Positions 36,192 to 62,060 of a DNA stretch of 64,000 nucleotides are shown in pieces. The position numbers were made by a program, and so were the translations under genes. Location: positions 554,137 through 618,136 of the forward strand of contig FN649755.1 in the NCBI GenBank assembly GCA_000310025.1, written 5' to 3'. The notes under the pieces were generated by a model. It had not been told where the DNA came from, made no database searches, and was given only the letters and a program-made list of their open reading frames with translations. The DNA is from Ectocarpus siliculosus. Taxonomy: Eukaryota; Sar; Phaeophyceae; Ectocarpales; Ectocarpaceae. Numbering within the stretch: position 1 is the first letter of the stretch; each line of letters opens with the position of its first letter.

Positions 36192-39100
36192 TCAGCATTC
36201 ATATCGCCAAACCACAAGAGCAGTGTGCTCGCGCACAATTGCTACGAGACGGGAGGCAGCCACGGCAATGCCGCCGACTAGAAAGAAGAACGTCAACAGC
36301 CGGGCCGACCCACCTTTGGGTTTGTTCGCCTTGCCGATCACTCCCTCAAGCTCCCTGAGCTTTGATTCGTGTTCACGGTGCTTCTCTGTCTGGAGTGCCT
36401 CGAACTGTCGTAGTTCAGAGACAGTCACAGGATGGTGGTCAGCCGCTGCCGTCGCTGACAGACACCAATCGAGAAAACAAGCAACCGAGGGTATGATAAT
36501 TGGTGAGGTAGGGACGCGAGTCTTTCTGGCCTGAGCTGTGCTTCCATGGCAGTCGGAGAAAGCGCACGGTGAGATAGAGGAGTCGAGGGCTGCAGATTCT
36601 TGAGGTAAATGGGCAATAAGGATGTGTGCTTATGCAGGTATTTGTTTGGGCGACTTTGCGAACATGATCGAGGAATCGTCTGGAAAAGAACAAGCTCCAA
36701 AGCACACACTCCAGTCTCGCATACGGGTGCGATGGGAAAACCTCAAATACTGAGGATTGGTATTTCAATGCTTCCCGATTGGACCCAACGCCACCAGATT
36801 CTTGATATTGTCGCTTTAATGTAAAATTTTCATGGAAATGACTGAATGTCGCGACCCGAAGTCACAGCAAGTGTTTACATCGTCAACCACAGGGTCGCCC
36901 GTTCGATTCTTGTCCATTTCCAAGCTGAGTAAAACAACCCGTATTTCACCAGCACATGCGAAGATGTCGGGAAAACGCACCAAGGCCACAGCGCCAGCGC
37001 TAAAAATGGCCTGAACCGTTGTCTTACCTCTATCTCGAGCTCTGTCCAAGAATCCTTCCGCCGTCTCGGTTATAGCCACCCGTCGTCTGAGAGCCAGCCC
37101 AGCCCCTACCATTGGTCGTGGACAACACAGGCAGGGAGTAAGGTTGGCAATCTAGCGGGCCTCAGCTCTCCGGGGTGCTGCTCTAGGTTGTGCCCGTAGA
37201 TTCCTTGCGGTAGGTGGCGGTAACACAACACAGTCGGCCTCACCTACATCCACGCTGCCGCCGGGCTCGCTGTCAGGGACAGGGACATGTTTCTCCAGGT
37301 TTACCACCTGTGAAGTCGGGCGTGGGACACGGGGTGATATGTGATCGCGGTGTCGAAAAACGAGCAACAAGCCGTTCTCTTGTTTATACTTGACTCACAG
37401 AATATGTCGAACCTTGGCATTATTACGGCGATCGCGTTTCACCTTGCGCTGGAGCTTCTTGTTCTCTGATCTCATTGCTTTCAGCTCTTCTTGCTGCTTG
37501 TCCTTGGCGGCTTGCAACTCTTCCAGCTCTGCTTGCTGCGTTTCCCTGTTGAACTTCAAAGCTTCCAACGCTGCTTGCATGGCGGCAAACTCTTCCCTTG
37601 AGGGCAACCCGCTGTCGTGGGCGGCCGCTACAACACCAGGCGATCGGACGATCACTTCCTTCGGCGTGTTCGACGTTGCGACGGGTCTATTACTGGCCTC
37701 GGGAAGGATTTCCAGCAGCAGGACGTCGATCTGCTCGCAGCATGAACAAAACGGATAGGATGTCCAACGCGAAACAAGCGTGTCGACCATTCTCTTCTCA
37801 TGGCACTGCGCGAAGTTTTGTTCCCATCACAACACATATGTGCTATTAGTGTGTACCCTGCTTGAGTTGACAAGGCTACCGCCCTTCCGGAGCTTGGTGT
37901 CGATATTCCTATGCTGTGCAAACCCTCAATCCGCAATATACATCAGCCCAAAAGGTTACCGGATGGGCCAACAGCCCCAGAGGAAAATTCACTGATCTCT
38001 CGGAAACATTTCCTGGTACACACTCGAGTCAATACCTTTTGTCCAATGCTGCTTGAGTCGTCAAGGCAACCTCGCTGAATAGCGTTCAGTAGCTTGCGAA
38101 GGTGCTTCTTGCCCAGTCGCTTTCCGCCCTAAAGAAAGAGGAGAACATAGTCGATACGATAGCGTGGAATAGCTCTCATTTCTGGACAAAACATCCTCTT
38201 GAAAAAATCGCCTTCGGGTAGACGATGGTATGTCAACAGCGGCGAAAATCTCCGTGCCCATACAAAAGTGGGTTCCATGTTTTCGACTCACGTGATCGCC
38301 GCGTTCGTAGCTCGCCACCTCTTCCAGCACGTATTCAAAGACGTCGTCTTCGCTCATGATATCAGGCGAGATATTAGCGCCTCCGCCAGATCCAGATCCG
38401 CCTGAGATACACCAAGCCATTATCGTAGCCGCAAATGCGACGAATGCCACTTTATGATGGACACTTGGTCCGCGGACGGTTGGTACTTGTCGTTGCTCTA
38501 GGCAGTGCGCTTCGGCGATGGGTAGAATAGCCACGTACAACATGACCGAATAAATTTTCGCATTGGCCCTGGCTTACGTGCGCCGAGTATTCCAATGGCA
38601 AACACCGCCCTCGATGCCGTCGTGTGACCACTGCGTTTTGACACGTACGCGGCTAGTGTCCTCCGATTGCTACATGTCTCAGGCGGTCGTAGGTACGCAT
38701 TTCTTTCCAAAGATTTGAGGAAATCGGATCGCTAAGAGCAACGCGGACCCGGTCATTCTGTACGAGAAGAATCCTTGCAGTAGAGGCTCCAGGACCATGG
38801 AGCTCGACACACAACCAGGTAGTTACTGTTGTGCGCAATCCCACGAAAAACTCCAACCTAAGAACGTAGTGGGGTGTACACGACGATCATTTCGACGGTC
38901 GATTCCATTCCAGCATGCAGCCTTGTGTCTGTGTGCCGTTCAACCTTGGACAAAGTGCGTTGCACAATTCAACCGGAACTGCCATATACATTCCTCTTTC
39001 TCGACACACCGTTCATGCACGCCGTAACGTGCTCAGAAACTTGGTCGGCTTGGTCAGCTCCCGCGCCGCTGTCGTCCTTGAGGCCGTCGGTTAGTTGTAG

Positions 39101-42100
39101 CGCCAACTTCCTCGCCAGAGAGCAGCACTCCATCGCGTCAGGTGCCATAGCCGCGATCTGCCAAATATCGAATGTAGACAGCCGTGTCGGTGATACTCGC
39201 TGTGGCAGGCAGCATGGGAGTGGGAGGGGTGTCTAGCGCACCGCACACGTCAACGTCGGGACCAAGCACGATTCCCCATAGACTCACCTTTACCAGTCGC
39301 CGAGTTTGGAGATAGTGGTCTCCGGTCTCCAACGCTTTACCAGCTAGTTCGGGCAGTCCGCCGACCACGGGAACTGCGCTAGACAACAGCTTCAAGGCCG
39401 CTCCTGCCTGAAATATATGGAAGAAGCAAATAAAACATCAGAGCTTCGAGTGACTTGGCAGAGAGCGTTCCGTGTCCACTGCAATCACAGACAACGCAGG
39501 TCCCACAAACCGCAGACTCTGGCCCTAACGGCGACACCGACCTTGCCCATACCACCGGTCTTGCTCGTGGACACCCAGTCACTGTTGATGACGCTGGCAG
39601 CGAGGTACGCCTCGCATAGACCGGTTCTAACGGCCGTGTAATATGCTCTCCAAAACGCGGGCAAGGCCAACTCTTTCTGTTGTACATCCATGTCCTCCGT
39701 GTGCTTCAACTGCGTACGCGGGAACCGACACGGGCGGCAGGTTTTGCGATGAGGAGAAATGGCACGAACGATTTTCGACAACATATATTTCTTGCAGTGC
39801 GTTCGTCGCTGATGCTAAGGGGTACCCCCAGAACCGCATGATGCACAGCACTCACCACAACTTCGCCTAGCGCCGTTGACATGGAAGCCAACGTACCGAG
39901 CTCCCGGTGCCTCTCCATGTCGCTGCGCTCATCGTCAGGAGAAACGCTTCCGGGGACTTGACTTTCAATGACGCGTTGGATGTCCTCCAGAGCTTCAGGG
40001 TTCTCCCCGATGAGTGAATCCAACCATGCCGAGGACGAAAGCTGCACTCGGAACAATCGGCCCGGTTCTGCCTGTTCCAGGGACAGGGAATCATGTTCTC
40101 GAGACACGGTCCTTTCCAACGCTACCTCCTCTCCTTGAGTTGGGGAGCCAAGCGGCATGGGGGCGTTCTCCTCCTTTTCGTCGCTCTCGCCTGCCTCCTG
40201 CTGCTGCGGTAGCAGGCGGGGAGGAGTAGACGGCGGAGGTTCAGGAGCTCTCGCCTCCTTTTGCTGATCCTTGACTGCCTGCTGTTTGCGCAATATTCGA
40301 TCTTTCCACGCACCAAGTGCCTCGCCCTTCGCCGGTCCTCCTGCAGGGGAAAAGCACCAAGAAAAACAGACAGGTTGGAAGAAACGCTCCTTGAGGGTGT
40401 CCCCCCGGTCGCAGGGATGGATAGTACACGAGTCGTGTGTTGCGATAACAGATTTCCATCTCGTGGACAATCAGCACGATGGCCGGATGCTCTAGCCGCG
40501 CGATGTGTTCCTTTTGACGTGTCTACGAGCCGATCTCTGTTGTCTTTGACTTTCGTGCCCGCCGTCATCGTCACCGAAGCAGATCAAAACTGCGCGTCCC
40601 CGTTCGCTTCCTTACCGGTAAGCTTGTTGCCACGGCGCAAGATGGCCTTCGATCTGGTGTTGCCAACCTGAAGCGTCGAAAGAGTACTCAAGTTTGCCAG
40701 CTCCGTCGGAACGGCACCTGCACAAGGAGCGTTCGCGGCCAATAGCAAACAATCACCATCACAGCATGAGAGGTACTTCGATCGCGGGCGGACATCCTTA
40801 CCAGATGGCCAGACCCGTGCTCCTCGCACACGTACGGTTGCTGGAAGACCGGGTGATTTGTTCACCCAGGGTGCACAAGACCAACACCCCCCAGACCAGA
40901 GCTGAACTGCACTGGCCAGGCTTTCGCACACCCAGGCATTCCACTCATTTTTTGGGTGCCCGAAGGAGGAGGTCAAAGAGCGCTCGGGAAAGAACAAAAG
41001 TAGCGGTACCGTCGGAATCATTCGGGCCTAGCGGAGTTAGCTAGTAGGATTCCTATACCGTCGAACGTGGGCAACCGAGGGGCTCGATAACAATTTGTTT
41101 GGACGCGAACTACTATAGCCCAGGTGCGAGGTTCACCCATACGGGTATCGAAGTTGACAGGCGGCCAAATTCTTCAACATGTTCTTGAAAAAAAAAGACA
41201 GAAACAATTTCCCCGCACGAAACGGTTTGCCCGTTTCGAATCGTACCATCGTCACCTGTAAGATTATTGTCTTCAAGACGGAGCTGTCCAAGGCGTTCCA
41301 TGGAGCCTAGCTCCTTGGGCACACGTCCTGCGCAACACACAAGCAAGATCAAGAAAAAAACCCGTCACAGCACATCTATACATAGCATGTTGGGTCACGT
41401 GCAAATAGAGCGTGTGAGGCAGTGTAGGTAATGGCGTAGGTGTGACCGTTGCTCTAGAGGTACTGTAGACAGCACCCCGGTATGTGCCTGTCTATTGGTT
41501 TATTGCTTGGCACAAGACAAGTTGTATTTTCTCTGCTCGGTCTCTCGATCGATCATTGCCAAAGAGTTTCGGATTGTTGGACTACGACTCCTGTGCGAAG
41601 GAAGGTGGGCCTGGTGCCACATGTCCGCATTTGACCACACAGTTATCGGTATAACCCCAAATTTGGGACACACTGTGTGGCAATGACGCGCAATCTCCCA
41701 CGCTGGCAGTTTTGCTAAACCGCCCATGGGTACCCATGGGTCGCCAATGGGCACTTCATGGGACGCTCGTGGGCAGCCCACCATTGGTGGGCCCATGGGC
41801 GGCCCATGAAGTGCCCACCGTGGGCACAACCTACAACTTCGCCACCGGCATATCAATCTGGAACGTAGGCACCGGCACATCAATCTTGAAGTTTGCCACC
41901 AGCGCCAAACTAGCACGCATCGTGTGGGCTTGGGGTGATTAGGGTCTAGGGTTATTTGCCGCTACAATACCCGTTCCAAAGCAGATAATCTACTGTTTTA
42001 GGAGTACACTGGTTCCTGTTGAAGGGCACCAATCGGCCGCCCATGGGCTGCCCACGGGCTACCCATGGGCTTGCCCGTGGGCATTCCCCATGGGCTGCCC

Positions 42101-42417
42101 ACGGGCGGTTCAGCCAAACTGTAGAAAGGGTGAGAGACCCATCACGCGCACACATACCGCTAGTGAGAAATGTACCGGGTAGCGGCCCAAACGTGCGACA
42201 CCACAAATACGAACCCAACGGGATGATAACAACAACAACCCCGCAGCCGATTGCACACGCGAGAAACAATACGAAGTTCTGCTCCCAATAGGGGGGGTAC
42301 TCATGTTAAAACGCACGCCTAGTTGTTAGACCATTATTCTCGCATCCAGATACAACACCCGGACGAAGCGAAATGCCAGGTTTTCGCCGACTCACATTTC
42401 ATTGTCCATGCGTTTGA

Positions 42418-42463
<46 letters not shown>

Positions 42464-45400
42464 CTGTCGACACACACATCCACGGCGAAGCCTTCTGCAC
42501 AAACGGCTGCAGTCTGACCGTTCATACACAGTGCGTCCGTAATTGTTTACTTCTAGTTCTCTTAGCACCAAGAGTTGTGCTACAAATGGCCGCTAGATAG
42601 GATATAGCGTAGGGCCCTTACCCGGACTTGTACTGTAATCAGCCCTAAAGTTGGGCTTTCGAAAACAATATTTGGTAGGCGATCGTTAGACACGGCGACC
42701 AGGACAAGAGGAGATTCGCGCAACTCTATCGCCCCCTTACGCAAACGCGTTGCCAGCTTGCTTAGCTAGAGGTCCCCGAAACATAGGGACGAAACCCGCA
42801 CAACGTTTCACCTCATACACGACTAACAAACATTTGATATCGCACTCTTGAAGCCGCACGAATCAGTCTTCTTGACCTGTCGTGGGAGACGAATTTCTCT
42901 GGGTAAATCGAACCCTGCTCTGATGGACCTACTCTCTCCTCTCACCGGTGAGTTTGTTGCCGCTCAAATCAAGATACATCATGCCCTTGAGATCCCCAAG
43001 CGTTTCGGGGATAGGCCCTGCCCAGAAAAGGAGCAAAGGGGGTCAGACCGGTGAACCGAATATTCTCCGATATGTCAGCCTACCCCACGTAGGGAGCAGG
43101 CATACATGCTACCAGTCTCGACAGGTCTCACAACACTGAGCTTGTCCGCGTATCAGGCCCCAGCCTAGCCAGCCTGACTGACGTTCCGAGCGGCTGGCGG
43201 ACATGTTGGGTAAATCTCACAGCAGCCAGACACACCAGACAACAAGCGCCATGATACATGCAGCGAACAATCTACAGCACAAACGGTTGGGCCGTGTCCA
43301 AGTTGTTCCTCCGCGTGGTGGACATGGTTAACGACAAGGACTTCGGCGATGTGCCCTGCACAAGCATCACAGAGACACAATTTGAATGCAGCGAAGGAGT
43401 TCGCAGACGAGGGGTCGCAACGTGCTAACGTGCTAACATAGCCCGTCAGGTGATCGTTGTCATGAAAGGAAACTACTGTTGTACTCCCCAGTTGTGTGTC
43501 CATTATGATCTGAGCGTATTGAGTTTTATACCACGCCCCTTGACCTAAACAAGGTGGGTCCCGCCCTAAACAAGTAATCTCGAGGTCTCCTTTTATACAC
43601 CAGTTGTAGAGGAAAATGTCCACACCGTCGTTCAGAACAGTCCTGTTTTGTTAAGGGGTGCGGTAGACTGCCATGTCAGAGCCTATGTGAAGTTTGGGTG
43701 ATCACCGACGGCAGTGCAGCTCTTGCCTCAACACAACCTACTCATCGCCGTGGTCGATTCGCCGGCCCGGGTCTGCTAGCATAATGACCAAAGATACTTC
43801 AAACGTTTGGAAAACATTACCGCACGGTAGCACCAACCTTGCTTTCTTCTTTCACCGAAGTGGTTGAACAATGACTCTTTGGGAACGCTTGGACCGTACA
43901 TCTGTTGTTCCTCAAATGGGCGGCAATACTCCAATTGTTTGTGTGAAGTTGGACTTTGTTCACGCCAAAACTAGGGGGGCTTCTCTTGGTTCACCGAAGA
44001 AGAGATGCGGACGACCCTTCAGGAGAAGCGTTGCCAGCTTGCGTCGAGCTCCCAGACGTATAGGAGTCAAACCCGCACAAGGGTTCAGTTTTCACACGAT
44101 TGTGTGATCCCCACTCTCAAAACCGTACGAAACCGACGGCTTCCTATCGCATGGGATAGACACATCTCTCTAGACAACACGATACACACGATCCTGCTCC
44201 GCTCAGGCTACGTTTTCTCACCGGTGAGCTTGTTGCTGTGCAAGTCAAGAGCGCTCAAATTCTCGAGATACCCAAGCTCTTCGGGGATAGGTCCTGCACA
44301 GAAAAGCAGCAACGCAGGTCAGACCAGTGAACTAAGTTCAAGTGTTTTCCAAGATACCAGCCTCGCTTACGCTGGGAGGAGGGCCTAACATATTCGACTG
44401 TAGCATGTTCGACACGTCTCAAGCCGGAAAGGCCCCCCCTCAGGCCCCAGCCTAAGCAGGCTAACTGAATCTCCGAGGACATGAAACGCACACCTCACAG
44501 CTGCCAGGCGTTTGAGAGAGCGAGCGCCATCATTCATATCCTAACAGTAGGAAAAACAAATACCATCATTCGCGGTACTTCTAGCACAGTCGCTGATGAA
44601 AAACAAACTCAAGCCTATAATCGATTGGCCTCTCGGGCTCACCAGCGAGCTGGTTTTCGAAAAGTCTCAGCTGTTGCAACCTAGGCAGAGATCCCAGCCC
44701 CTTAGGGATGAAACCTGCACAAACATTCAGCACACGATGCAAGTTAGTTTCGCGCATATGAAGCATTGAATGCGTTGATACGCGTAGCCTGACGAGCGTA
44801 TGCTACGGTATGGGAGACAAACGTTTCAAACAACCCCTTCTATGCTCACGCTAACCTCTCTCACCCGTGAGTCTGTTGCCGCGCAAGTCCAGGGTCAACA
44901 GCTCCCTGAGATTTCCAAGCGCTTCAGGAAGAGGCCCTGCACAGGAAATGAACGAACAAGGCCAGAGAAGTACGCCCCATGACAAGTGCTGCGATCATAT
45001 AAAAATGGGTTGTTCTTGCAGTGTAGGTCACCATGATTCATTCTCAACCGATCGCGAGAAACATGGGTGGACACGCCATTGGCCTGGAAAGAGCAATGCT
45101 CCACTTGTGGTCAGGCGGCAGAGGCCTGGTCCACCGAAAAGCCAGCAGGACGCATCCTCAGAGCTCTGCGGGATAGACTCAAGATACCTTGGAGGTTGTT
45201 GTGGGACAGACCCAGTTGGATCACTCGGCCATCTCTGTTGAGTCGCACTCCGCGCCATCGCCGGAGCTCTGCGTTGGTGTCCCAGCTGTCATTTTGAGTC
45301 CAACGATCCCCGCCGGTAGAACGAAACAGGGCCACCAGTGCCGTACGATCCTCAGACGACATTGCAAACTGCTGCGGGGTGCACAGCGAGGACGAAAGCG

Positions 45401-45485
45401 AGGGATAGGGGCAAGACGAGCCAGGTGGGCATAGCCAACTCAGCACCAAGAACAGGGCAGTTGAAAGGCCGAGGTGTTGCGACAT
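36192..45485 (-). CDS. gene A: secreted/anchored LRR coiled-coil protein, 17 exons
   Basis: Exons: 45188-45485, 44865-44936, 44643-44714, 44222-44293, 42946-43017, 41256-41327, 40616-40717, 39856-40340, 39542-39709, 39288-39407, 39010-39157, 38292-38401, 38036-38128, 37443-37730, 37244-37307, 37028-37105, 36192-36454. All phases agree (2,577 nt, 858 aa). Exon 1 encodes a signal peptide (LGLSTALFLVLSWL) and an LRR cap (DRTALVALFRSTGGDRW, WRGVRL, LGLSHNNLQG). Exons 2-6 each encode one 24-aa LRR (G.IP..LG.L..L..L.L..N.L.G); exon 7 encodes a 34-aa LRR with a 10-residue insert. Then come an acidic/Pro/Gln linker (about 254-415), a conserved middle region (415-628), a coiled coil (about 628-724) and a likely membrane helix at about 822-844 (LLTFFFLVGGIAVAASRLVA) with a 14-residue tail. 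A surface recognition role is inferred from the LRRs; no kinase, GTPase or NB-ARC domain is seen. Confidence 0.82.
36840..36925 (+). other. possible tRNA-derived (SINE-like) fragment
   Basis: Inside the last intron of gene A, the plus strand carries a T-arm-like GCCCGTTCGATTCTTGTCC preceded by tRNA-sized DNA. It does not fold as a full tRNA by eye. On the minus strand the same stretch reads as a possible alternative terminal exon in gene A, with its acceptor mutated in gene B. Confidence 0.2.
37860..38000 (-). pseudogene. decayed conserved block in an intron of gene A
   Basis: This corresponds to gene B 53170-53320, where an open segment (LYLACELSARLVALFGLAG, then GDIDNKLLRG|GTGTAG) looks exon-like. 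In A the aligned stretch keeps NIDTKLRK but has TGA and TAA in the matching frame and GCGGTAG instead of a donor. In B its phase (0 in, 1 out) does not fit the neighbours, so it may be a lost ancestral exon in both. Confidence 0.4.
41707..42121. mobile_element. inverted-repeat element built of GCCCATGGGC palindromes, 415 bp
   Basis: The left end CAGTTTTGCTAAACCGCCCA and the reverse complement of the right end (CAGTTTGGCTGAACCGCCCG) match over about 34 bp. Inside each end are runs of the palindrome GCCCATGGGC and variants (about 8 left, 7 right). The element sits in the intron between exons 5 and 6 of gene A. It has no coding capacity and no obvious target-site duplication. Confidence 0.65.
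42421..42460. repeat. (CT)20 microsatellite
   Basis: An uninterrupted 40-bp CT repeat lies in the intron of gene A between exons 5 and 6. Confidence 0.95.
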
Positions 45486-46611
45486 ATTGACGGGATCATA
45501 ATGATAAGATACCCTCCACACGATGCTACCTGGAGATCCATACGATTCCTCCCTCGTTCTAAAGGTGGTCACTCTAGAGAATGAAAAATTCATTGTAGGC
45601 TGTTCCCGGGCGAGCACGGTTCGACAAAGCAGAACGCCGCGGGGCGAAAATTAAGGCCCACGGCGCAACCTACAATAACTCACCATCTCACGCCGGACGC
45701 AGCAATCGAGTGTGGAGAGCTTGCCCCCCCAACGATCAGGCGCGGACTGAACCCGGAAAGACAAGTGGGGTGAATAAAAGGGTCTGATCTATCCGCGCTG
45801 TGCCGGTTCGCAAACCAGAACTGGATAAGCCGAATACGAAGGCGTTGTGTCGGCCAGAAGCCCGCGTTCTCCCTCGTAACCACATTTACGGTGACAGCAA
45901 GAGGCGTAGAAGTCCTACTTACATAGTTCAGGTTGTATTTGCGGCAGTATCATATGTTTGGTTCGCAAACAGCGGAATATTCGTCATGAAGAGGTGCCAA
46001 CGGATGCGGTTGTCATAACCAACGTGAGACGGCACGACAACGGTGCCTGGCGTAGGAGCTCTCGCTTGGCTCTGACTGCACCACCCCGACGTGATGCAAG
46101 TGTGCCTGTCTGTGCAAGGCGACCATACCAGCTGAAAGAGAGTCGCAAGAGCGATCTGGCTACACCGCCATCTAGAGTTCCTTGGAAGTTGTTGAGGGGT
46201 CCTGCACGCCAGGTATCGACTTCCTCCAAGTCGTATCAACGCCAAAGCCTCTTGGGGACTTATGTACTATGTTGGACCACGACTTCTGGGGAAATACCAG
46301 GCACTAGTATCAATTTCTGTTTCTGTGAGTATAGAAAAGGGAATGAAAGGAAACAAGCGAAGGTACACGGAGTTTTTTATATTGCAATATGAACTGGATC
46401 CCTGAGGAAGTCCGAACTGGATCCCTGAGGAGGTCCGACTATCCACACCGTTGCGGCATCCGAAGATACAAAGTCTCGTGACGCATACGGCAAGGGCAGC
46501 AATTTAGCAACTTGTTCAGGCTCCAACCAATTAGTATCGATGACTTTCCCATACGACTAAGACTTATGTAGGAGCTGCTTTGATATCCCGCAGAGGGATC
46601 AAGAAACAAAC
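45486..46611. other. upstream region of gene A
   Basis: Presumed promoter and 5' UTR of gene A. At about 46175-46220 the minus strand has a weak resemblance to the end of the LRR-cap exon (LNNFQG versus NNLQG), without a donor; if real it is a decayed copy of exon 1. Confidence 0.3.
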
Positions 46612-46794
46612 CTCGGGCAAAACAAGAGGTTCATGCCAGGTGACTCACGAAGCATCTTCTCCGGGTGTTGCATGCATGATGTGGCATCAAAGTAGGGCTC
46701 ATAGGATGCATCGAAAACTTTACCCGACGCACGCCTGAGATCGTTTATAAGTTGTGTTATACCGGTATATCTATCGTAGGTCCCCCGCCAACAT
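46612..46794 (-). CDS. orphan exon, unknown protein
   Basis: A 183-nt open segment, phase 2 at both ends, lies between CCCTATTGCAG (acceptor) and CCCGAG|GTTTGT (donor). It encodes a soluble-looking stretch with motifs RGTYDRYTGITQLINDL, GKVFDASYEPYFDATSC and MLRESPGMNLLFCPR. I do not recognise the family and find no neighbouring exon. It may be a captured or relict exon between genes A and B. Confidence 0.4.
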
Positions 46795-50629: not shown

Positions 50630-53600
50630 TCATCCGCGTCCTGCTGAGACAAAGCCCGATAGAACAACTGGGTTAGGGTAAGGGTTGTGAAGGCATCTCG
50701 TTGGCGGCACACAGAAGGCCCAACAAATTTGCTTGGCCGTCAACGAACAGATGCCCAGCATTGTGGACACCTTGCAAAAGCAAAAGGGTCCCCAGAGCAT
50801 GGAAGGCTGGAATGAATATAACAGCTCGTTGGGCTTGACCACCCCAGCTATTATCGAGAAGAAAATCCCGAGAGCAGTGGGTTCGTCTACAGTTACCGTG
50901 ATACTGGCGAAAAACCACAGTAAACAGCCGAATACCAAGAAGAAAGCCCAGTGCTGAGCGGACTCACCCTTTTCTCGTTTGGTGGCCTTACTGATCTCTC
51001 CCTCGAGCTCTCTCAATCTCGCTTCGTGTCCACAGTGCTTTTCGTTCTGCAGTGCCTCGAACTCCCTTTGTTCGGCGACCGTCACCGGATGGTGGTCAGC
51101 CGCCGTCGTAGCTGGTACAAAGCAACAGAGAGAGCACAAACAAAGGAGTGGACGATGGTGGGTGAGGCACGAACATGAGTCTCTCGGACGAGAGCACATT
51201 TTGGAAATAACCCGAAGAACGCGCTAGGAGAGTTGCGGGGTCGGGTGGGGGAGGGGAACAACCACACGTGGTACATGGGCAAGGAGAATGCGGGCATATG
51301 AAGGTTGGGTTGTGTGATTCAGTACACGTGAAGCAGGGGCCGTGTGAGGGAGGACAGCTCCATTATTTCGTACACAGTCGTGATACCGGGTGCGGTTGGA
51401 ATCCCAGACCATCGCGCACGGATAAACGTAGCCTTGCGATTGGAACTAGCCTGGAGACAGATATTTGTTGCTGTTCCTTTCAGAAGGTTTCTTCACGAAG
51501 ATGGCTGAACAAGTCTTTCCCGAACACTTACATCCTTAGCTATAGGGTCGCTTACTCGGTCCTTGTCCCGTTCCAAGATGACCACGTGGAATAACCAGTA
51601 CCATAACCAGCAAACACGACCATGTCGGAATATCCAAAACAAAAACCACGGTTCTCGACCGTTGGCTCACCTCTATCTCGAGCTCTGTCGAAAAACCCTT
51701 GCGCGGTCTCTGTTACAGCCACCCGTTGTCTGACAGCCAGCCCACCCCCTGTCATTGGTCATGAACACACAATGCCATGGAACAATGTGGGATGGTAACC
51801 TAGCGGCTCAGGACTGGGAATGCCAGAGGTGCAGCTCTCGGTCGTGCCCGTAGATTTCTTGCACTACTGCTGTAGGTGATGGCAACAGAACAGCAAGTTG
51901 ACTCACCGTAGTCCACATCGTCGTCCGGCTCACTGTCAAGCTCTGAAGCATGTTTCTCCAGTTTCTTCACCTATGTAGTCGAAAATACACGACAAGAGTG
52001 CTTCGTGATCGGGACGGAGAAACATTTGCAACTCGTACGCCAACGCTTTGTTGTGTTGGCACTGGGCTCAGAGTACGTCGGAAAGCCAATAAATTCACAT
52101 GTCAACATGCAGATACACTGTTGCCGTTCAATCTGAGCTCGGTCGCTTTTCACCTTGCGCTCGAGCTCATCTTTGGCGGCCGTCAACCCTTCCAGCTCTT
52201 CTTGCTGCTTTTCCTTGGCGGACTCCACTGCTTCAATTTTCGATTGCTGCTTCTCCTTGGCGGATTTCAACGCTTCCAGCGCCGCTTGCTGCTTCTCCTT
52301 GTCGAAATGCAACGCTGCCAGCTCTGCGTGCTGCTTTTCCTTGGCGGACTCTACTGCTTCAATTTTCGACTGCTGCTGTTCCTTGGCGGATTTCAGCGCT
52401 TCCAGCTCATTTTGCTGCTTCACCTTGGCAGATTGCAGCGCTTCCAGCTCTGCTTGCTGCTTCTCCTTGGCAGACTGCAGAGCCTCCAGCTCTGCTTGCT
52501 GCTTTTCCCTGGCGGACTCTGCTGCTTCAATTTTCGACTGCTGCTTCTCCTGGGTGGATTTCAGCGCTTCCAGCTCATTTTGCTGCTTCTCCTTGGCAGA
52601 CTGCAGCACTTCCAGCTCTGCTTGCTGCTTTTCCTTGGCGGACTCCACTTCTTCAATTTTCGATTGCTTCTTCTCCTTTTCGGACTCCACCGCTTCAATT
52701 CTTGATTTCTGCTTCTCCATGGCAGATTTCAGCGCTGCTAGCTCCGCTTGCTGCTCTTCCTTGTCAGACTTCAGTGCTTCAAGCTCTGCTTGGTGCGTTG
52801 CCTTGTCCGACCTCATTACTTCGAGTTCTGCTCGCTGCATATCCTTCGCTGATGTCAGCGCTTCCACCGCTGCTTGCAAGGCGGCAATATCTGCCATTGA
52901 GGGCAATGTGCCGTTGTGGGTGGGCGCCAAAGCAGGAGGAGATTGGACGATCACTTCCTTGGGCGAGATCGACGTTTCCGAGGTTCTAATGTCTGCCTCG
53001 GGAAGAATCTCCAGTAGAAGGAGCTCCATCTGCTGGCAGCATGAACAAAACGGATAGCATGTCCAAGACGAGACAAGAGTGTCGACCTGTCTCATGGAGG
53101 TGCTTGAATTTTCCTTCCCATCACAACCACATCTGTGCTAATACCGTGTACCCTGCCTGCTCGAGAAAAGAAAACCTACACCTCTAAGGAGCTTGTTGTC
53201 AATATCCCCTTCCCGTGCATACCCTCGCTCGGCGGTGCCCGCCAGCCCGAAAAGCGCTACTAGACGGGCCGAGAGCTCGCAGGCTAAATACAACTCGCAC
53301 TCTGTAAAATCATGCCTGGTGCACACGCGATACCTTTTGTTTAATGCCGCTTGAGCCGTCAAGGCAACCTCGTTGAATCGCCTTCAACAGTTTTCGAAGG
53401 TGCTTCTTGCCTAGCCGTTTTCCACCCTGAAGAAAAGAAGGCAGAATCGTCGACAAGGTTAGCGTCGTGTTGTTCTCATTTCAAGAAACATCCCCTTCTT
53501 CAAAATTGTCTTAGGATACACCACCGCATGCCCACAGCTGCGAAAATTTCCATACCTTTGAGGTTTCGTTTGTAGACTTACGTGATCGCTGCGTTCATAG

Positions 53601-56600
53601 CGGGCCACCTCTTCCAGCAAGTGTTCAAAGACGTCGTCTTCGATAATGATATCAGGCAAAATATCAGCGTCCCGGCCAGATCCAGAGCCGCCTGAGACAT
53701 GAGGTACGAAAACACGATCATGGCCACAAGTACGCGAGAACTCTACGTGAGAGTAGACACCTGGTCCGCTGGCGGATGACCGTCGTCTTCGTTCGGGGCG
53801 GTGCGCTTGTATTAGCGCTGGCAATTGGAACAACCACACGGCATGACGAAGCAAAGCAACACGTTGACCCTGCCTACTGCGTGCGGCAGTGGTGCGGTCT
53901 ACTGGTGAACTAAACCCTCAATGCGGTCATGTGAACCTTGCCTTGGCCATGTACGTCTATTGTCCTCCACTTTCTCGATGATCCAGAAAATCCTTAAGCC
54001 AGTGTAGGCAGGCATCCTTCTGCCACGACTGGCAGCAAATGGTATTGCCAAGTAACGTGGACCCGATCACTGTACCAGCATAACGCTTGCCATAGGGGCT
54101 CCAGTTGCAACGGCGCTCGATGCACGCACACGGATGGGAACGGCATTGTGCGCGACCCCACCCAAGGGTTTGTGAGGTCTACACAATTGAGATGTTCGGC
54201 GGAATTTGCCAACTCAATCAACACGCAAACCATGCGTCTGCGCCATATTAGCCAAATGCCGCCGTCAGATACTGCCCTTGTGTATGCCGCACCGTTCATG
54301 CCCGCCGTGGTGTGCGTACAGACTTGGTCGGTCTCATCGTCCATCATGCCGGTATCGTCTTTGAGGCCGTCGGTTAGTTGTAGGGCCAACCTCCTCGCCA
54401 ACGAACAACACTCCATTGTGTCAGCTGCCATAGCCGTGATCTGGCAGACATCGACAGTGGACGTCGGTTCATTTATACGAAGGCTGGATGTGCGAGGTGT
54501 AGCTAGCGCAGCGTACTAGGCAACGCCGGTAGCAAGCACGCCTAGCGACAGACTCACCTTTGCTAATCGTCGGGTTTGGAGATAGTGGTCTCCGGTCCGC
54601 AGCGCTTTGCCTGCTAGTCCGGCCAGTCCACTGATCACGGGAACTGCACTAGACAGCAGCACCAAGGCCGTTCCTCCCTGAAAGAGAGTAAAGCAAGCAC
54701 CAGGGCTTCGACTGGTTGGCAGAGAGGATATTCATTTTGACTGCACGTACAGAATGTGTAGGAAATGTGAGGCCACAGACTCTGGTCCCAACGCGGCACC
54801 CACCTTGCCCATACCACCGGTCTTGCTCGTGGACACCCAGTCACTGTCGATGACGCTGGCAGCGAGGTAGGCGTTGCATAGCCCGCTTCTGACGGCGGTG
54901 TAGTAGGCTTTGGAAAACGGAGCCAACGCTAGCTCCTTCCGCTGGACGTCCTTATCCTCGGTGTGGCTCAACTGCGCACGCAGGCGACGTTGCATGATTG
55001 GCCATTAGTCGAACTACCAAGTACCATTTTCGACAAAACGTTGTGATCACAGATCACTGCCCAACTCCCGACGGAATCGCATCATCCACAGGACTCACCG
55101 CAACCTCGCCTAGAGCCTTTGCCATGTTCATCAGCGCACCGAGCTTCCGGCGCCTCTCCATGTCGCTAAGCTCATCGTCGAAATAAAAGCCTCCAGCCGC
55201 CGGTGCTTTGATGACCCGTTGGATATCCTCCAGAGCTTCAGGGTTTTCTTTGATGAGTGAATCTAACCCTGCTGAGGACGAAAGCTGCACTCTGAACAAT
55301 CGGTCCACTTCTGCTGCCTTCCCTGGGGACAAGGAAGCATTTTCCGGAGAACGGACCCGTCCCCCCACCGCCGCCTGTCTGTGGGTGGGGGAGACAAGCG
55401 GCAGGGGAACATCCTCCTCGTTTTCGTCCCCCCCGCCTGTCTCCTGCTGCCGTGGTAGCATCACGAGAGGGATAGAAGGGAAAGGTACGGGAGCGTCCTC
55501 CTCCTTTTTCTCGTCGTCGCCTGTCTCCTGCTGCTGTGATAGCAATACCGGAGGGGCAGAAGGGGAAGGTGCGGGAGTGTCCTTCTCCTTTTTCTCGTCC
55601 TCGCTTGTCTCCTGCTGCTGCGGTAGCAATACCGGAGGGGCAGGAGGGGAAGGTAAGAGAACGTCCTCCTCCTTTTTCTCGCCCTCGTTTATCTCCTTCG
55701 GCTGCGGTAGCAAGAAGGGAGGTGTAAGAGGAGGAGGAGGTACGGGAGCGTCCTCCGTTTGGACAACCTTGAGTGTCTGCGGTTTCGTCTCATGATTGCG
55801 CCACATTCGATCCCTCCACAAATCAAGCCTCTCGCCATGTGCCGGTCCTCCTGCAGGAGAATAGGGTCACAAGACTGTTAGCCGACTTTCTTGCGGGTGA
55901 AACTATGTTCACAGGGGTGGTGCACGAGCCTGGAATCGCCATAGCAGATCTCATCTGATGAAAGAGGTAATCACAAGCCAACGAGTTCCCCTTGTGATGT
56001 TGGTCTTGCTAGGAACAATTTGTCAGATCTCTGTTGGAGACAATTCCCCTTTCTGCAGCCAACAAGAGGGGGCAAGGTCGATACAAATGTATATCGTATC
56101 CCAGATGTATGATGGGGTGCATTATGGGGCAAAGAACGTGTCGTGCCAACAGCACCGAGCACTGTGTTGCGGCCAGGGTGTTCGAAACGTGAAACTCAAA
56201 TGGCGTTGCGAGCGCGCAGAGGGGCGAGTTCGTTGACGGAAAGTCACAGAATGTAACACAGAGGTTGTTCCTGAGGCCGGCGACAAAAGCATCCAGTTAG
56301 ACATCCCGGAGGGAAATTAGCCCCAATTTGGACTGAACATTGCAGTTGTCGGGTCAACTTGCTCTCGACAATTCGCCGATGTGGTCGACATGGCAATAGC
56401 TATAAAAGGAATTAGAAGGATTTGGCACGAACCTGAACGCTCTAGGGATTGGATACAACCAATGCCAAGGTACTCGGACACGGGCAAGGACCTGCGTACA
56501 CGCACTGTATACTTGCCCGTGGGAAACAGCCAATATCAGTATCCAATCTTGGCGGATTCCGTAGCAAAACTCGTCGGCGAAACCATACTCCAGTAGAAGG

Positions 56601-59600
56601 TGTTTGTACTTCTTCGTACGCTTAGTCCTGTCTCTATAATAGTATTATATTGGGCACTGTTTGTGCTGTCTAAGAACGGGAGCTGACGTGGCATCCCTGG
56701 CTACTGAGTTTGTTTCAAGCAAACTAGTCCGATTTCTAATTGTTCGACGTGTTCTCCACAACGCGTGCACAATGTGCCACACCGTTATGTGCCGGCCATC
56801 ACCTCGATCGTTCATGTGTATTCTGTCCTTGCTTTGTACTCACCGGCAAGCTTGTTGCCACGGCGCAAGAGGGCCTTCCATCCTGGGTTTCTAAACCAAA
56901 ATTTCGAAAGAGCACTCAAGTTTGCCAGCTCCGCCGGGATGACTCCTGCGTAAGCAGCGTATTGGTGGTCAGAAAGAGAAGCGATAAACGTTTCTTGTAG
57001 CAATCACCGCATAGACAGCTCTGCGATTGAAGACTGAAATCCGCACGTAGCCAACCTGGTGCATAAAGCGTGCGTGCACGAGAGCCTTGTGACGGTTGCA
57101 AGAGGTTCGTTGTTGGATCGCGTCAGCTATACACCTAAATCTATTATGTGGCTAGTGCATGCATGGTCAACATGTCCCAGACAGGGGATAATGCTGCACT
57201 GGCCTCGATTCTCCGCAGCATCAGCAGACTGGCAAAGGGCCAGGATCTACGCACACCTAGCTATGCTAAACCTGTTCCGGGTGTCCGTGGGAGGCCGGAG
57301 AGTGCTCGGGGAAGAATGCAAGTATCTGTATTTCGTATGGCATGGTTCGTGTCTGCGGCACAAGCAACTTGGAATTCACTACTGCTGTAGGATGGCACTC
57401 TCCGACGGAGCAAAGCATGTTAGAAAGGCTGAACATAAGGGTCGCCGGCATTCCGCGGGAGAAAATTATTCAACATGCGTAGGCATAGGCGGCGATACCT
57501 CCACATCCCATGGGAGCACGGGGAACCAAGCAACGTCAGGTGTGTGCTGGGTCTTTCCGGGAATCAGGTGGCTGCATCGAGACCGTTACCTACCAGCTTA
57601 TCATTTTTTTCGGTCTGTGTAGAGTACGGGTGACGCGACGCCATATTGCATCGCGTAGAGGCCGTAACTGTACCTCAGCACGCAAGTTCCTGACTCCATG
57701 TGTTGCTACCTGCTCAGGATTGATCACGGATTGACGGGGCGCTTCCAACCAACTTGTGGTGCTCGAGCTGGGTATCAACGAGCACACGGCAGTAGCAATG
57801 GACTACCATGCACAGTCCTGGGATAGCTCGAACCCTTCCCCTCCCGCGTGGGCACAACAGAAGGTTGACGTTCCACACGTTTCAAATGTAGCAAGCCGCT
57901 TACCCCACGGCAGTGGTATTTACCTTTAACTAGACTGTTCTCCCGAAGCTGAGCGACCGAGGAGCTCTAACACTACACTTCAATGCTGAGGTGAACGAGC
58001 TCAGACGTGATCATGTGTGTGTTCATTAACCTTGTCCAAAGCATGAGAACAACGCCCGCGTGTGTCGATACTACTCTCTCCAACAGTGAAGGAATGTACA
58101 ACCTGGACTAGGAGGCTTGCCGGTGTTGTAACACCCATACCTGTTAGGCGGTTGTTCTGAAGATGAAGCTCCCGAAGGTTCTCCAAGTCTCCTAGTGCCG
58201 TGGGAACGGGTCCTGAAATTTGCACCACCGAAGCAGCATCCAACAAGAAGCGGTCGCCCGGCACCGGAAGGCCAATACAGACCACGATTGGCGTAAGTGC
58301 AAACAGCCAAATATGGTCTGTCAACGCGCTACCGATAAGCGCCCGCGCTTAAAAACTTAGCACTTAAGAAACTGAGGCTCGAAAAATAACAGAAGCTAAG
58401 AAATTGAGAACCATTCGTGAGCCCAGTAAAGAACCACTACACTAAAACATATATAGCAGTCATTTGCAGCCCACAAGAGGAACTAAGAACCCCAGGCTCG
58501 GCCCAAAACGATTAAATAGAGGTTCTTAAGTGCGGGCGTCATCTGTAGTCTAAACGTCCAACCAGTTATATGGGCGTCGCCGACAACTCTGCTGCATGAA
58601 AAGTTAGCGTCACGAGAGAAGGCTGCAGACAACCGACGGATGAAATGCACCATGAAACCAATTGTTTTACAAGCGACTGTTGGTTAGGTAGCTTTTAACC
58701 TACTTGTCGCGAGGTTTCTGTAGAAATGCTTGATCGTAATATCTGCCTCAATGAAGTTACAGCGCTAAGCTGGAACCAGGCAAGCAAACGTTGAAACTCC
58801 GTCCAACAATTGTCTGTGGATTACCATTCATTTTCTTGAAACCCTGTGCACGCGGTTAGCACTCGATATATGAACAAATTTTTGCATGCATGGTTTTGGT
58901 CTTTCAACGGACGTACGATAGCTGATTCTTTTTCCCCGCATCGATGCTCGGAAACATTTCTAGACATGGAATGGAACGGTCTCCATTTGTCCATTTCTGC
59001 ATGCCCGGGGAATGCAACCATCATGGCCAATCATAGCCCCGGTGTTTGATTCGGAGGCACCAACTTACATCCTGATACACGACTCCTTGGCAAGAAAGTA
59101 ATTGTACAACTGCGGCAGACATGGAGTGACGACATTCCGTGATCGTAGCAAGTGTCCTCAAGGGGCGACATCGAACCAAGGGGATTCGAATATCCGTTGA
59201 CTACTTCTTCACCGAACAGCTGGCTGCCGTTAGCTCAGAATGTTGCAACTTGCCTAGTCTAGACATGTCAGCCACGTACGGATGGAACCGAAACCAGCAT
59301 TCACTGCATGACACTATGTAGGTGCCATGACGAAGCTTCAGTACTCATGGCGTCCACCCGCGCAGGTGCTGTCGGTGCCTGTTACAACGTGGGTGGGACA
59401 CACCGTCGAAAACAAGCGTGCGCTCCTTGTGTCGCTGTCTCTCACCCGTGAGGTTGTTGTCGTCCAAACAAAGATACCGTACCTCCTTGAGAGCTCCAAG
59501 CGCTTCAGGGATAGGCCCTGCAAAGAATAGGAACGAACGTAGTCAGACCGGTGGTACACCGTATTTTCCGAGACATGCGTCTCATCCGCCCGTGACCGCC

Positions 59601-62060
59601 GCACATGGTTGTAGCACGTTTAATGCCTCCCACATCAAACGCTGGCGCCTGTCACACCTCGGCCGAGCCAGGGTGACTGGGGCTACGAGTTATCAACTAA
59701 TCGATTGACGCAAATCTCACAACCGCCTGACACAACAGAGAGCAAGATCCACCATAGAGGTTGGTACGTCCAACACACTACACGAAACGGCCGTTTCGAC
59801 ACAGGAGATGGCCGCCTAGGGCATTGTCGATCGAACTGCGATCAATAAATCTTGTTCATGCTGAACGCCCCATATTTTGTACGGGTGCAACACAAATACC
59901 GAGCGCAGCAGTGACAATTCTGCACAAAGTCGCGATCCCACCGCCCTTGAGGGAAAAGGAATGGGGTGAAACCGCCATGTTTCAATGCCCCCGCGGTGGC
60001 GCTGTGTAGGGCTGAAATTTGCTCTTGGCCAATCACGGATCTGATGATAGACTCCAAACGTCGAAGTTCCAACGTCTAACGTGCTCAACCTGGTACGAAT
60101 ACGTTTCAGACAGCCCTCAATATTCCAGCACACACTATCGTGGTACATGGAACGCGACCGTTCTGTGGTCGCATCCCATGCCGTGCCAGGGCCGTTGTTC
60201 GATGATCATTTTGACTAATTTTCTCTCACCGACCAGCTGGTTGCTTTGCGGCCAAAGCTGCCGTAAATTGCCTACAGATACCAGCCGTGTAGGGATGGAA
60301 CCAGCACAATATTTCACCACATCAAACATGATGATAACACGCAGGTGGTACATCGTTCAGCCTAAACGTGTAGGTTGCCAAAGGCGTTTCCTAGGGCACT
60401 GGAGAGACACATCTGAAAAATGAATCACGCGTTTCTGGTGCCATCCTCTCTCACCCGTAAGCTTGTTATTGTACAAATACAGTTCCGTTAGCTCCTTGAG
60501 AGCCCCCAGCTCTTCAGAGATAGGCCCTGCACAGAAAAATAACGAACCAAGTCAGAACGGCGAGCAGTGTTGAAGTGTTCTCGAAGGCATGAGTCTCTCC
60601 GTCGTGTAAGCACGACCCATGATTTGATCGCGTTCGAAACTGCCCACACTAAAAGTTTGCGCCTGCTACGCCCTGGCCTAGCCAGCCCGACTGGGACTCC
60701 GAGTTTCAAATCGATAGGTGTACGTCAATCGCACATCCACCAGACACAAAAGCGAGCAAGCCCCATCCTACATGCCATAGCGTTCCAAACCATGGAAGCG
60801 ACCTTTTCATCATAGGGAGCGCCCTGTGGGCGGGGCTGTCGATCACACTGGAACCAAAAAAATATCGTCCAATCTGAACGCCGAACATCCCATCTCCCAC
60901 GATCACCAAGCGGAACAATCGAAATCATGGACGCCGCTGACCTCAGCTTGGGTAACGAGCACGAGAACAAAGGCGACAATGACTACGTTTCGTTTGGACG
61001 CCCAATGGGTGGCGATAGGGACGAAATCTGTTCTCGGCCAATCACAGACTTCGAGATGGACTGGAAAGGTCGAACTGCCCACGTGATTTATGCTCAACCC
61101 TGGCATGCATATGTCCAAGTACTACAGAAGACAAATGTACAGCCAGGGGCGCCGTCGACAAAACTGGACTCGACGATCGCTTTGACTCGTTCCCCTCTCA
61201 CCGGCCAGCTGGTTGCTGTGTAGCCCAAGTGTTTGCAAATTATGTAGAGATCCCAGCCATGCCGGGATGAAACCTGGGCAGGCATTCAGGACGTGAAACA
61301 AGCTGTCATGGTGAAGCTTGTTCATGAGATGGACTATGTCATCTTTCCCAAGGCTACTACTGTATCACCATGTGTGGTAGTTTGTTTGAGAAGTGAAAGC
61401 GACCCTTCCGCGGACGTACATGTTTCGGGGTATCTCCCAATATATATTTCAACAGTTGTAGACGACTGCGTTGCTATTCATGTGTGCATGGGCGCATTAG
61501 ATACTGTATACATAGTGTGGCATCGACAGGAACCGATATTACCCTGGGTCGGGTTGATGGTTGATCCACGGGGCTCGGCTACATGGGAGTGCTTGCTGGC
61601 GTTGTGCACTCTCTCTCCCGCCACCGTGCATCAAGAGTCTTGAGATTGCCCTTATTTCAAGTGATGAACATGCATCTTCACTATCCACAAGGGTATACGA
61701 AAAATTGCGAGTGTTGCGTGCATGTTTGTCAATAACCTGGTGGTTACTCTACTCTCTTGCTTGTGCCCAAAGGGCAACCGTGTAAACGACCATTGCACCT
61801 CTCCATCTCTTCACGCCTGTCATCTGGGTCAGCCTTGCCCGTCAAGCACCACTATATAGGCTTCGGGTCAATCAACTAACCCGACTCATTAATTGCGTCG
61901 TACCGTGCACGCTGCCGACAACCTTTCTACGGCGTGGGAAAGACAATTGTTCTAAACAATGATGGTCTGGTCAACCATGCTTTCTCACCGGTGAGCTTGT
62001 TGCAGCTCAAATTAAGAACCATTAGCTCCTTGAGACCTCGAAGCGTTTCAGGGATAGTCC
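50630..62060 (-). CDS. gene B: tandem paralogue of gene A, 5' end not found
   Basis: Exons seen: 61989-62060, 61202-61273, 60455-60526, 59446-59517, 58141-58212 (24-aa LRRs), 56844-56945 (34-aa LRR), 55099-55850, 54804-54971, 54558-54677, 54293-54440, 53582-53691, 53334-53426, 52154-53029, 51907-51970, 51671-51748, 50630-51111. Phases agree throughout and match gene A exon by exon. The linker exon is 752 nt (485 in A) and holds about four copies of a Pro/Glu-rich unit (VLLPQQQET and variants). The coiled-coil exon is 876 nt (288 in A), with two-heptad units such as SAKEKQQAELEALQ. The C-terminal exon reads through a hydrophobic stretch (FFLVFGCLLWFFASI), a second one, and a longer tail than in A. 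No signal-peptide exon lies within 62.1-64 kb, so the gene either starts outside the window or has lost its start. Role as for gene A, by homology. Confidence 0.75.
52154..53029 (-). repeat. 42-nt coding minisatellite in the coiled coil of gene B
   Basis: Within this exon a 14-codon (two-heptad) unit of the type SAKEKQQAELEAL repeats about 15 times with variants in the last residues. Because the unit is a multiple of 3 nt and of two heptads, gain or loss keeps both reading frame and heptad register. Open frames on the opposite strand (up to 300 codons) are shadows of the repeat. Confidence 0.85.
55958..56596 (+). pseudogene. broken coding-like insert in an intron of gene B
   Basis: One plus-strand frame of 213 codons starts with ATG and a signal-peptide-like segment (VPLVMLVLLGTICQISVG). 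It has in-frame stops at 56234-56236 (TGA) and 56318-56320 (TAG), and otherwise reads as soluble protein (TECNTEVVPEAGDKSIQLD, LNIAVVGSTCSRQFADVVD, TVYLPVGNSQYQYPILADS). The host intron is about 990 bp, against 275 bp at the same place in gene A, so this looks like an inserted, now broken gene copy. I do not recognise the family. Confidence 0.45.
57905..57945 (-). pseudogene. relic LRR exon in an intron of gene B
   Basis: The minus strand reads SVAQLRENSLVK followed by G|GTAAAT, the tail of an LRR with its donor, but a stop codon lies upstream in that frame. A similar stretch (GAGCCCCTCGGTTGCCCACG) lies at about 41070 in the equivalent intron of gene A. Confidence 0.35.
58339..58540. mobile_element. 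MITE-like inverted-repeat element, about 200 bp
   Basis: The left end GCGCCCGCGCTTAAAAACTT and the reverse complement of the right end (GACGCCCGCACTTAAGAACC) match over about 20 bp. There is no coding capacity. It lies in the gene B intron upstream of the 58141-58212 LRR exon. It shares CTTAAGAACC with the ends of the element at 15251-15440. Confidence 0.55.
60230..60301 (-). pseudogene. LRR exon with destroyed 3' splice site in gene B
   Basis: A 72-nt, phase-1 LRR segment (SIPTRLVSVGNLRQLWPQSN then QLVG) has a normal donor (GTCG|GTGAGA). The base pair before it is TG (TGTGCTG|GTTCC), where related exons at 44714 and 61273 have CAG. A consensus Leu is also replaced by Trp-Pro. It is probably skipped, and skipping keeps the frame. 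Confidence 0.6.

What the first reader, a model, noticed from the sequence alone, without database searches (positions are those of the whole stretch)
36192..62060. Tandem pair of LRR genes with a novel-looking layout: LRR, linker, coiled coil, C-terminal anchor
Genes A and B align exon by exon with identical phases over at least 16 exons, yet differ in LRR number, linker and coiled-coil length. Seen: exon structure and motifs. Known: in brown algae, LRR-GTPase (ROCO) and NB-ARC-TPR genes carry one repeat per exon and have been proposed as exon-shuffled immune receptors. Inference: these are a further class of recognition protein, lacking GTPase, NB-ARC and kinase domains, perhaps signalling through coiled-coil assembly.
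Basis: partly seen in the sequence, partly recalled or inferred. Interest (0 to 1): 0.85.

Follow-up and report, generated by a model that had tools for sequence, protein, structure and literature searches.

The report
Brown-algal LRR receptors with unknown tail
Two neighbouring genes in what looks like a brown-alga genome belong to a larger family that joins a fast-changing recognition part (one repeat per exon, as in known algal candidate immune receptors) to a conserved tail domain that matches no catalogued protein family searched here, so they may be a second, undescribed type of intracellular recognition protein.

Summary
Genes A (36192-45362, 17 exons, 817 aa) and B (first exon 64060-64234, just outside the window; 18 candidate exons, 1199 aa) share every non-cassette exon, with equal phases. 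Corrections: not just a pair. A third copy follows on the contig, and 13 loci in the genome carry all five exons of a conserved core. B's fourth LRR exon has no AG acceptor. The C-terminal anchor is clear only in A and B. A signal peptide is not supported. Length differences in linker and coiled coil are in-frame minisatellites. The LRR exons match the 72-nt cassettes described for brown-algal ROCO genes, and the same first exon occurs at 66 places: 23 are nearest to ROC exons, 10 to this core, 33 to neither. Pfam finds only LRRs in A and B. The core has no Pfam, NCBIfam, PDB-sequence, viral or prokaryotic relative found here. Concave-face LRR sites vary most (pN/pS 1.62, against 0.61 at other sites), while the core is conserved (A/B dN/dS 0.26). 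Best reading: an intracellular LRR recognition family using the ROCO sensor with another signalling tail. Immunity and coiled-coil assembly are inference; no transcript was available.

The parts
45188..45362 (-). Gene A exon 1: start Met and LRR N-cap (MSSEDR...NNLQ)
   Evidence: exon family of 66 places in the genome
44865..44936 (-). Gene A LRR cassette 1 (72 nt, phase 1-1)
44643..44714 (-). Gene A LRR cassette 2
44222..44293 (-). Gene A LRR cassette 3
42946..43017 (-). Gene A LRR cassette 4
41256..41327 (-). Gene A LRR cassette 5
40616..40717 (-). Gene A last LRR exon (102 nt, ends AILRRGNKLT)
39856..40340 (-). Gene A linker exon: GGPxxGE start, Pro/Glu-rich middle, conserved 3' part
39542..39709 (-). 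Gene A core exon H1
39288..39407 (-). Gene A core exon H2 (hydrophobic, AVPVVGG, GDHYLQTRR)
39010..39157 (-). Gene A core exon H3 (ECCSLARKLALQL)
38292..38401 (-). Gene A core exon H4
38036..38128 (-). Gene A core exon H5 (GGKRLGKKHLRKLL)
37443..37730 (-). Gene A coiled-coil exon (short)
37244..37307 (-). Gene A exon E15
37028..37105 (-). Gene A exon E16
36192..36454 (-). Gene A last exon with hydrophobic segment FFFLVGGIAVAASRLVAIV and stop
61989..62060 (-). Gene B LRR cassette 1 (B's N-cap exon lies at 64060-64234, beyond the window end)
61202..61273 (-). Gene B LRR cassette 2
60455..60526 (-). Gene B LRR cassette 3
60230..60301 (-). Gene B LRR cassette 4, acceptor CTG instead of AG: probably skipped
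59446..59517 (-). Gene B LRR cassette 5
58141..58212 (-). Gene B LRR cassette 6
56844..56945 (-). Gene B last LRR exon (102 nt)
55099..55850 (-). Gene B linker exon, with an 84-bp repeat x4.2
54804..54971 (-). Gene B core exon H1
54558..54677 (-). Gene B core exon H2
54293..54440 (-). Gene B core exon H3
53582..53691 (-). Gene B core exon H4
53334..53426 (-). Gene B core exon H5
52154..53029 (-). Gene B coiled-coil exon, with a 42-bp repeat x14.5 and heptad periodicity
51907..51970 (-). Gene B exon E15
51671..51748 (-). Gene B exon E16
50630..51111 (-). Gene B last exon with hydrophobic segment FFLVFGCLLWFFASITVTV and stop

Best explanation
A and B are members of a multigene family of intracellular LRR recognition proteins. 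A short N-cap and a variable number of one-exon LRRs form a curved sensor whose concave face diversifies. The sensor is joined through a Pro/Glu-rich spacer to a conserved, probably helical five-exon core of about 213 aa that passes on the signal, followed by a coiled coil that probably oligomerises and, in A and B, a single C-terminal membrane segment that would tether the protein with the LRRs in the cytosol. The sensor is of the same cassette type as in the LRR-ROCO candidate immune receptors of brown algae; the GTPase tail is replaced by the new core. Shown: exon structure, family, no ROC or NB-ARC match, shared sensor exons, variable sensor versus conserved core. Inferred: joined transcripts, cytosolic topology, helical fold, oligomerisation, signalling, and a role in recognising microbes or non-self.
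For: Twelve single exons pair in A and B with equal phases. LRRs, linker and core occur in the same order at other loci with largely conserved splice sites (one exception is a GC donor after H5 in E); linker homology starts at a phase-1 acceptor (GGPxxGE) with no conserved Met, matching the phase-1 donors of the LRR exons. Core conserved in 10 aligned loci; A/B dN/dS 0.26 for H1-H5. LRR sites 14, 16, 18, 19, reported as positively selected in brown-algal ROCOs (PMC11378527, section 11), have the highest mean pN of the 715 four-site sets of the 13 non-framework sites; pN/pS 1.62 (bootstrap 0.99-2.85) against 0.61 (0.42-0.88) at the other 19 sites. N-cap and 72-nt exons are shared with ROCO genes of this genome. 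Segments of 19 aa with mean hydropathy 2.26 (A) and 2.28 (B) near the C-terminus.
Against: No transcript or protein evidence. The concave pN/pS bootstrap interval just includes 1, exon pairs are not independent, and the other nine non-framework sites have pN/pS 1.10. The membrane tail is missing or changed in C, D, E, F and was not found in J; tails of G-I were not established. A coiled-coil match was not found at G or H. Locus I shows no LRR exon in the fetched upstream sequence (about 5.5 kb). A, H and G2-G4 allow or need other start codons. Structure prediction failed (pLDDT 36.3). ROCO genes of a kelp have also been linked to growth rate (PMC12913910, passages), so the sensor type does not prove immunity.
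Confidence: 0.55

Rival explanations
1. Developmental or housekeeping signalling: the LRRs bind endogenous partners and the family is a scaffold or adaptor unrelated to immunity.
For: LRR-ROCO genes, which share the sensor, are near growth-rate markers in a kelp (PMC12913910, passages) and respond to several stresses (PMC11378527 abstract). The core is conserved.
Against: Concave LRR sites are the most variable, and copy number and recovered cassette number differ between loci, which is unusual for fixed endogenous partners.
Confidence: 0.25
2. LRR reservoir: these loci are mainly stores of LRR exons for ROCO genes, as Teng et al. 2024 suggested for LRR-only sequences in Saccharina.
For: Same 72-nt phase-1 cassettes; dead cassettes occur (B LRR4; a stop-bearing cassette in E); 9 of 47 family LRR exons have a ROCO exon as nearest neighbour, against 29 with another family gene and 9 with the same gene (22 ROCO exons from two loci).
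Against: The non-LRR core is conserved at many loci and under purifying selection between A and B; a mere reservoir would not need it.
Confidence: 0.1
3. Two adjacent genes: an LRR-only gene and a separate core plus coiled-coil gene, merged by eye.
For: No RNA data; locus I has a core without LRRs in the fetched upstream stretch.
Against: The order LRR-linker-core recurs at A-H and J (9 of the 10 A-J loci) with a phase-1 donor and acceptor and no conserved start codon at the linker.
Confidence: 0.07

Closest known systems
LRR-ROCO genes of brown algae (Zambounis et al. 2012, paper not held, known here through later papers; Teng et al. 2024, PMC11378527: abstract, sections 3, 11, 15 and part 1 of 2 of section 9 read)
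   Same: Same N-cap exon family, same 72-nt one-LRR exons (2 nt + 23 codons + 1 nt), most variable sites 14, 16, 18, 19, and in two ROCO genes here the same start Met as in B, C, E, F, J
   Different: No ROC or COR match; instead a conserved core of unknown family, coiled coil and variable C-terminus
Non-ROCO shuffling-LRR sequences of Saccharina japonica (15 mentioned in Teng et al. 2024, section 15)
   Same: 72-bp shuffling LRR exons outside ROCO genes
   Different: Described there as mostly LRR-only; no core, coiled coil or anchor is described in the sections read
NB-ARC-TPR genes of brown algae
   Same: Candidate immune receptors with shuffled repeat exons (TPR; Teng et al. 2024, section 15)
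   Different: No NB-ARC or TPR match in A or B; none of the 27 NB-ARC matches in this genome is on C30, C13, C15 or C33, the contigs of the 13 full cores
HeLo / MLKL-N / RPW8 helical death domains
   Same: Only a recalled resemblance: Gly/Pro-rich hydrophobic helix followed by a Cys/Leu-rich helix
   Different: No such Pfam match for any of 10 core members up to E=10, within HMMER's filters; no usable structure

Membership tests
LRR-ROCO | ROC GTPase domain | tested here: not met
   No Roc match in A or B; no Roc or ROC-exon match on contigs C30 or C13. The Pfam Roc search alone misses ROC exons split by introns, as one search shows
LRR-ROCO | COR domain | tested here: not met
   No COR match in A or B. 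COR is hardly detectable exon by exon here: the only genome hit lies in an ORF that resembles a mitochondrial calcium uniporter (recalled; ORF)
LRR-ROCO | 72-nt LRR exons in equal phase, with the shared N-cap | tested here: met
NB-ARC-TPR | NB-ARC ATPase and TPR repeats | tested here: not met
   Pfam scans of A and B; NB-ARC genome search
LRR receptor kinase | Kinase domain | tested here: not met
   No kinase match in A or B
LRR receptor kinase | Signal peptide and extracellular LRRs | tested here: inconclusive
   In B, C, E, F and J the N-cap Met is the first in-frame ATG after a stop (5 of 10 family loci read); A has upstream ATGs, H none, G2-G4 others; a spliced upstream exon cannot be excluded
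HeLo/MLKL/RPW8-type death domain | Sequence match to a catalogued helical death domain | tested here: not met
   0 of 10 core members match such a family up to E=10
HeLo/MLKL/RPW8-type death domain | Four-helix bundle fold | tested here: inconclusive
   Only an unspliced single-sequence model was run; mean pLDDT 36.3
Recognition receptor under diversifying selection | Excess replacement change on the LRR concave face | tested here: inconclusive
   Point estimate 1.62 and first rank of 715 site sets, above 1 in 973 of 1000 bootstraps, but the interval is 0.99-2.85 and the method is approximate

The most novel reading that the evidence does not exclude
Brown algae run a modular intracellular receptor system: one shuffled-exon LRR sensor is plugged onto interchangeable signalling tails. 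ROC-COR is one; the core described here is a second, a new domain family that may act at membranes through its hydrophobic H2 segment and C-terminal anchor; the 33 N-cap loci assigned to neither tail may hold more.
Probability: 0.35. Interest if true: 0.82.

Novelty: new variant of a known kind. Interest (0 to 1): 0.6.

Why it matters
[quoted passage not shown] If these genes are expressed as modelled, the published ROCO sensor is not tied to one signalling tail. The conserved core then gives a concrete, testable handle on how recognition is turned into a response, and a profile with which the family can be counted in other brown algae and stramenopiles.

Tried and rejected
Catalogued relatives of the core: Pfam, NCBIfam, PDB sequences with one member and with the profile, viral contigs and prokaryote genomes gave no credible relative; the few weak hits match single members or score near chance. 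No eukaryotic proteome was available, so relatives in other algae are untested.

A structure of the core was tried on B's unspliced H1-H3 stretch, introns included, with the two stops read as residues. Result: pLDDT 36.3. It was discarded and no fold search was run.

The idea that A begins with a signal peptide (the 41 aa before MSSEDR) is not supported: B, C, E, F and J have a stop and no earlier in-frame ATG, and ROCO genes at C11 and C9 start at the same Met (which replaces, where my parser chose wrong frames for several loci). Against a uniform start: A and the N-cap at C30:839556 have earlier in-frame ATGs, H has none, G2-G4 use other positions, ROCO_C5 and ROCO_C20 have more than one candidate.

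A first classification of N-cap loci with one ROC query (6 ROC, 10 core, 50 neither) was replaced after a second ROC query by 23 ROC, 10 core, 33 neither. Of the 50 first unassigned, four were read: two (C4, C9) hold ROC exons, two (C476, C8) show LRR exons but no core match and no ROC noticed in the 10 kb read. Of 18 core places, 8 have no N-cap within 35 kb.

The claim that the family is undescribed rests on eight searches of an open-licence library only. Zambounis et al. 2012 was not held.

Full report
Observation. Both genes lie on the minus strand. Comparing all open frames of the two regions gave matching exons in the same order. Splice sites were then fixed by hand from sequence flanks and both models built. 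A has 17 exons and encodes 817 aa; B has 18 candidate exons and encodes 1199 aa. B's first exon (64060-64234) lies just past the window end and was read from the adjoining stretch. The 12 exons that are not LRR cassettes pair one to one with equal phases. Identity of the paired exons: N-cap 36/58, last LRR 19/33, linker 93/161, H1 46/56, H2 31/40, H3 35/49, H4 26/36, H5 27/31, coiled coil 55/96, E15 11/21, E16 19/25, last exon 46/86. All LRR cassettes of A and B are 72 nt, phase 1 at both ends. B's cassette at 60230-60301 has CTG where AG is required; because the cassettes are symmetrical it can be skipped without loss of frame. Pfam finds LRR families above cut-off in A and B; the other listed matches are below cut-off and mostly of coiled-coil type.

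What differs. The linker of B contains an 84-bp repeat (4.2 copies) and its coiled-coil exon a 42-bp repeat (14.5 copies); A has 2.4 copies of a 42-bp unit. So the length differences are in-frame minisatellite changes. B's coiled coil has a clear heptad signal (power 8.9 at 3.5, 0.0 at 3.6); A's short one does not (1.8 and 1.9). Both proteins have a strongly hydrophobic 19-residue segment in the last exon (mean hydropathy 2.26 in A, 2.28 in B); no dedicated membrane predictor was available.

Family. A query of B's core found 78 exon matches in the genome, a query of a distant member 70. Reading the loci gave 13 with all five core exons: A-F on contig C30, G, G2, G3, G4 and H on C13, I on C15, J on C33. 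Five further places are partial or only partly read: K (C16, core fused and shortened), two on C477 in inverted arrangement, one on C36 and one on C15. Upstream LRR exons were seen at A-H and J; none was found in the fetched upstream sequence of I; upstream sequence of G2-G4 was not fetched. Splice sites are largely conserved; E has GC instead of GT after H5. A coiled-coil match was found in A-F, I, J, G4 and the C36 place, not in G or H. A tree of 13 core sequences separates the C30 group from the rest with full support, with D and F grouped together. The core alignment of ten loci has 45-73% identity to A and many invariant residues. Between A and B, H1-H5 has dN 0.13 and dS 0.50, ratio 0.26.

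Tail. The anchor exon is not conserved: D and F keep the DHHPVTVSEQREFEALQ part but only a short hydrophobic stretch, and C and E share different C-terminal exons, one of them coiled-coil-like. No anchor match was found in J; the tails of G-I were not worked out.

Sensor shared with ROCO. The genome looks like a brown alga: 150 matches to the EsV-1-7 motif (150 of 880 candidates were scored), with none in 14 control genomes; that this motif is typical of brown algae is recalled. A ROCO gene on C5 has LRR exons of the same length, phase and splice context. A second LRR-ROC locus on C4 has 14 such exons and a third on C9 shows one in the stretch read. The N-cap exon occurs at 66 places. Two ROC-exon queries give 30 distinct loci (counted). 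Taking for each the nearest N-cap upstream on the same strand within 35 kb, 23 N-caps belong to ROC loci, 10 to core loci and 33 to neither; six ROC loci and eight core places found no N-cap. Teng et al. 2024 report 31 ROCO genes in Ectocarpus, 72-bp LRR exons whose nucleotides 3-71 code the LRR, and selected sites 14, 16, 18, 19; the exon layout here is the same.

Selection on the sensor. From nine family loci 49 cassette exons were recovered by an AG-72-GT scan; the antisense strand and one shuffle of each region gave none. Of these, 47 with a repeat score of at least 9 of 10 were compared; 90 pairs of at least 75% identity, from 29 exons, were counted. At sites 14, 16, 18, 19 pN is 0.518 and pS 0.320; at the other 19 sites 0.124 and 0.204. 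Since exons were chosen by framework residues, the fair comparison is with the other nine non-framework sites: pN 0.186, pS 0.169, ratio 1.10. The four sites rank first of 715 sets among the 13 non-framework sites. Bootstrap over exons puts the concave ratio at 0.99-2.85 and the rest at 0.42-0.88; the concave ratio exceeds the rest in 1000 of 1000 and exceeds 1 in 973 of 1000. The 22 ROCO exons show the same contrast. This is an approximate count on non-independent pairs, not a likelihood test.

Topology. In B, C, E, F and J, 5 of 10 family loci whose first exon was read, the Met four residues before the DR of the N-cap is the first in-frame ATG after a stop; two of four ROCO genes read start at the same place. 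A has two earlier in-frame ATGs, but that stretch has no counterpart in those five, so I read it as non-coding. H has no Met there, and G2-G4 have Mets elsewhere. Without a signal peptide, a single C-terminal membrane segment would leave the LRRs in the cytosol (inference).

The core. No credible Pfam, NCBIfam (weak single-member hits only), PDB, viral or prokaryotic relative. H2 carries a hydrophobic Gly/Pro-containing stretch of varying strength in all ten members (best 19-residue mean 0.93 to 2.03). A resemblance to HeLo or MLKL-type helical bundles is recalled, not shown. The only model run was unusable.

Literature. Searches of the open library led to ROCO and NB-ARC-TPR genes as brown-algal candidate receptors, but in what I saw to no description of an LRR, core and coiled-coil class. 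The nearest mention is 15 non-ROCO sequences with shuffling LRR exons in Saccharina, mostly LRR-only (PMC11378527 section 15). Of PMC3879662, PMC8307928, PMC4986451 and PMC12913910 I saw passages only. The original 2012 paper could not be read, so a prior description cannot be excluded.

Verdict. The stronger statement is about a family: a published sensor cassette joined to an uncatalogued conserved tail. Recognition is suggested by the pattern of variation; immunity and the signalling mechanism remain inference.

Noticed in passing
window 60230-60301; L005 3429-3497: Dead LRR cassettes inside otherwise open genes: B's has no AG acceptor, one in locus E has a stop codon. Symmetrical exons may let such cassettes decay and be skipped.
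   Followed up: partly
G000 C30:839556-839732, and N-caps on C9, C16, C476, C8 and other contigs: 33 of 66 N-cap exons have neither a ROC exon nor this core within 35 kb downstream; they may be ROCO genes missed by my queries, LRR-only genes, or carry other tails.
   Followed up: partly
L015 (C477:40000-49499): Fragments of the core in inverted arrangement, with N-cap exons on both sides (C477:30596 minus, 53593 plus); looks like a rearranged or degenerate copy.
   Followed up: no
L017 (C17:274385-274576): The only COR-A domain hit in the genome lies in an ORF that resembles a mitochondrial calcium uniporter (recalled), not a ROCO protein.
   Followed up: partly
window 30179-30754, minus strand: Ankyrin-repeat ORF (Pfam Ank, E 4.4e-15), not part of the LRR genes.
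   Followed up: no
window 20876-24088, plus strand: Open frame of 1071 aa without a Pfam match above cut-off.
   Followed up: no
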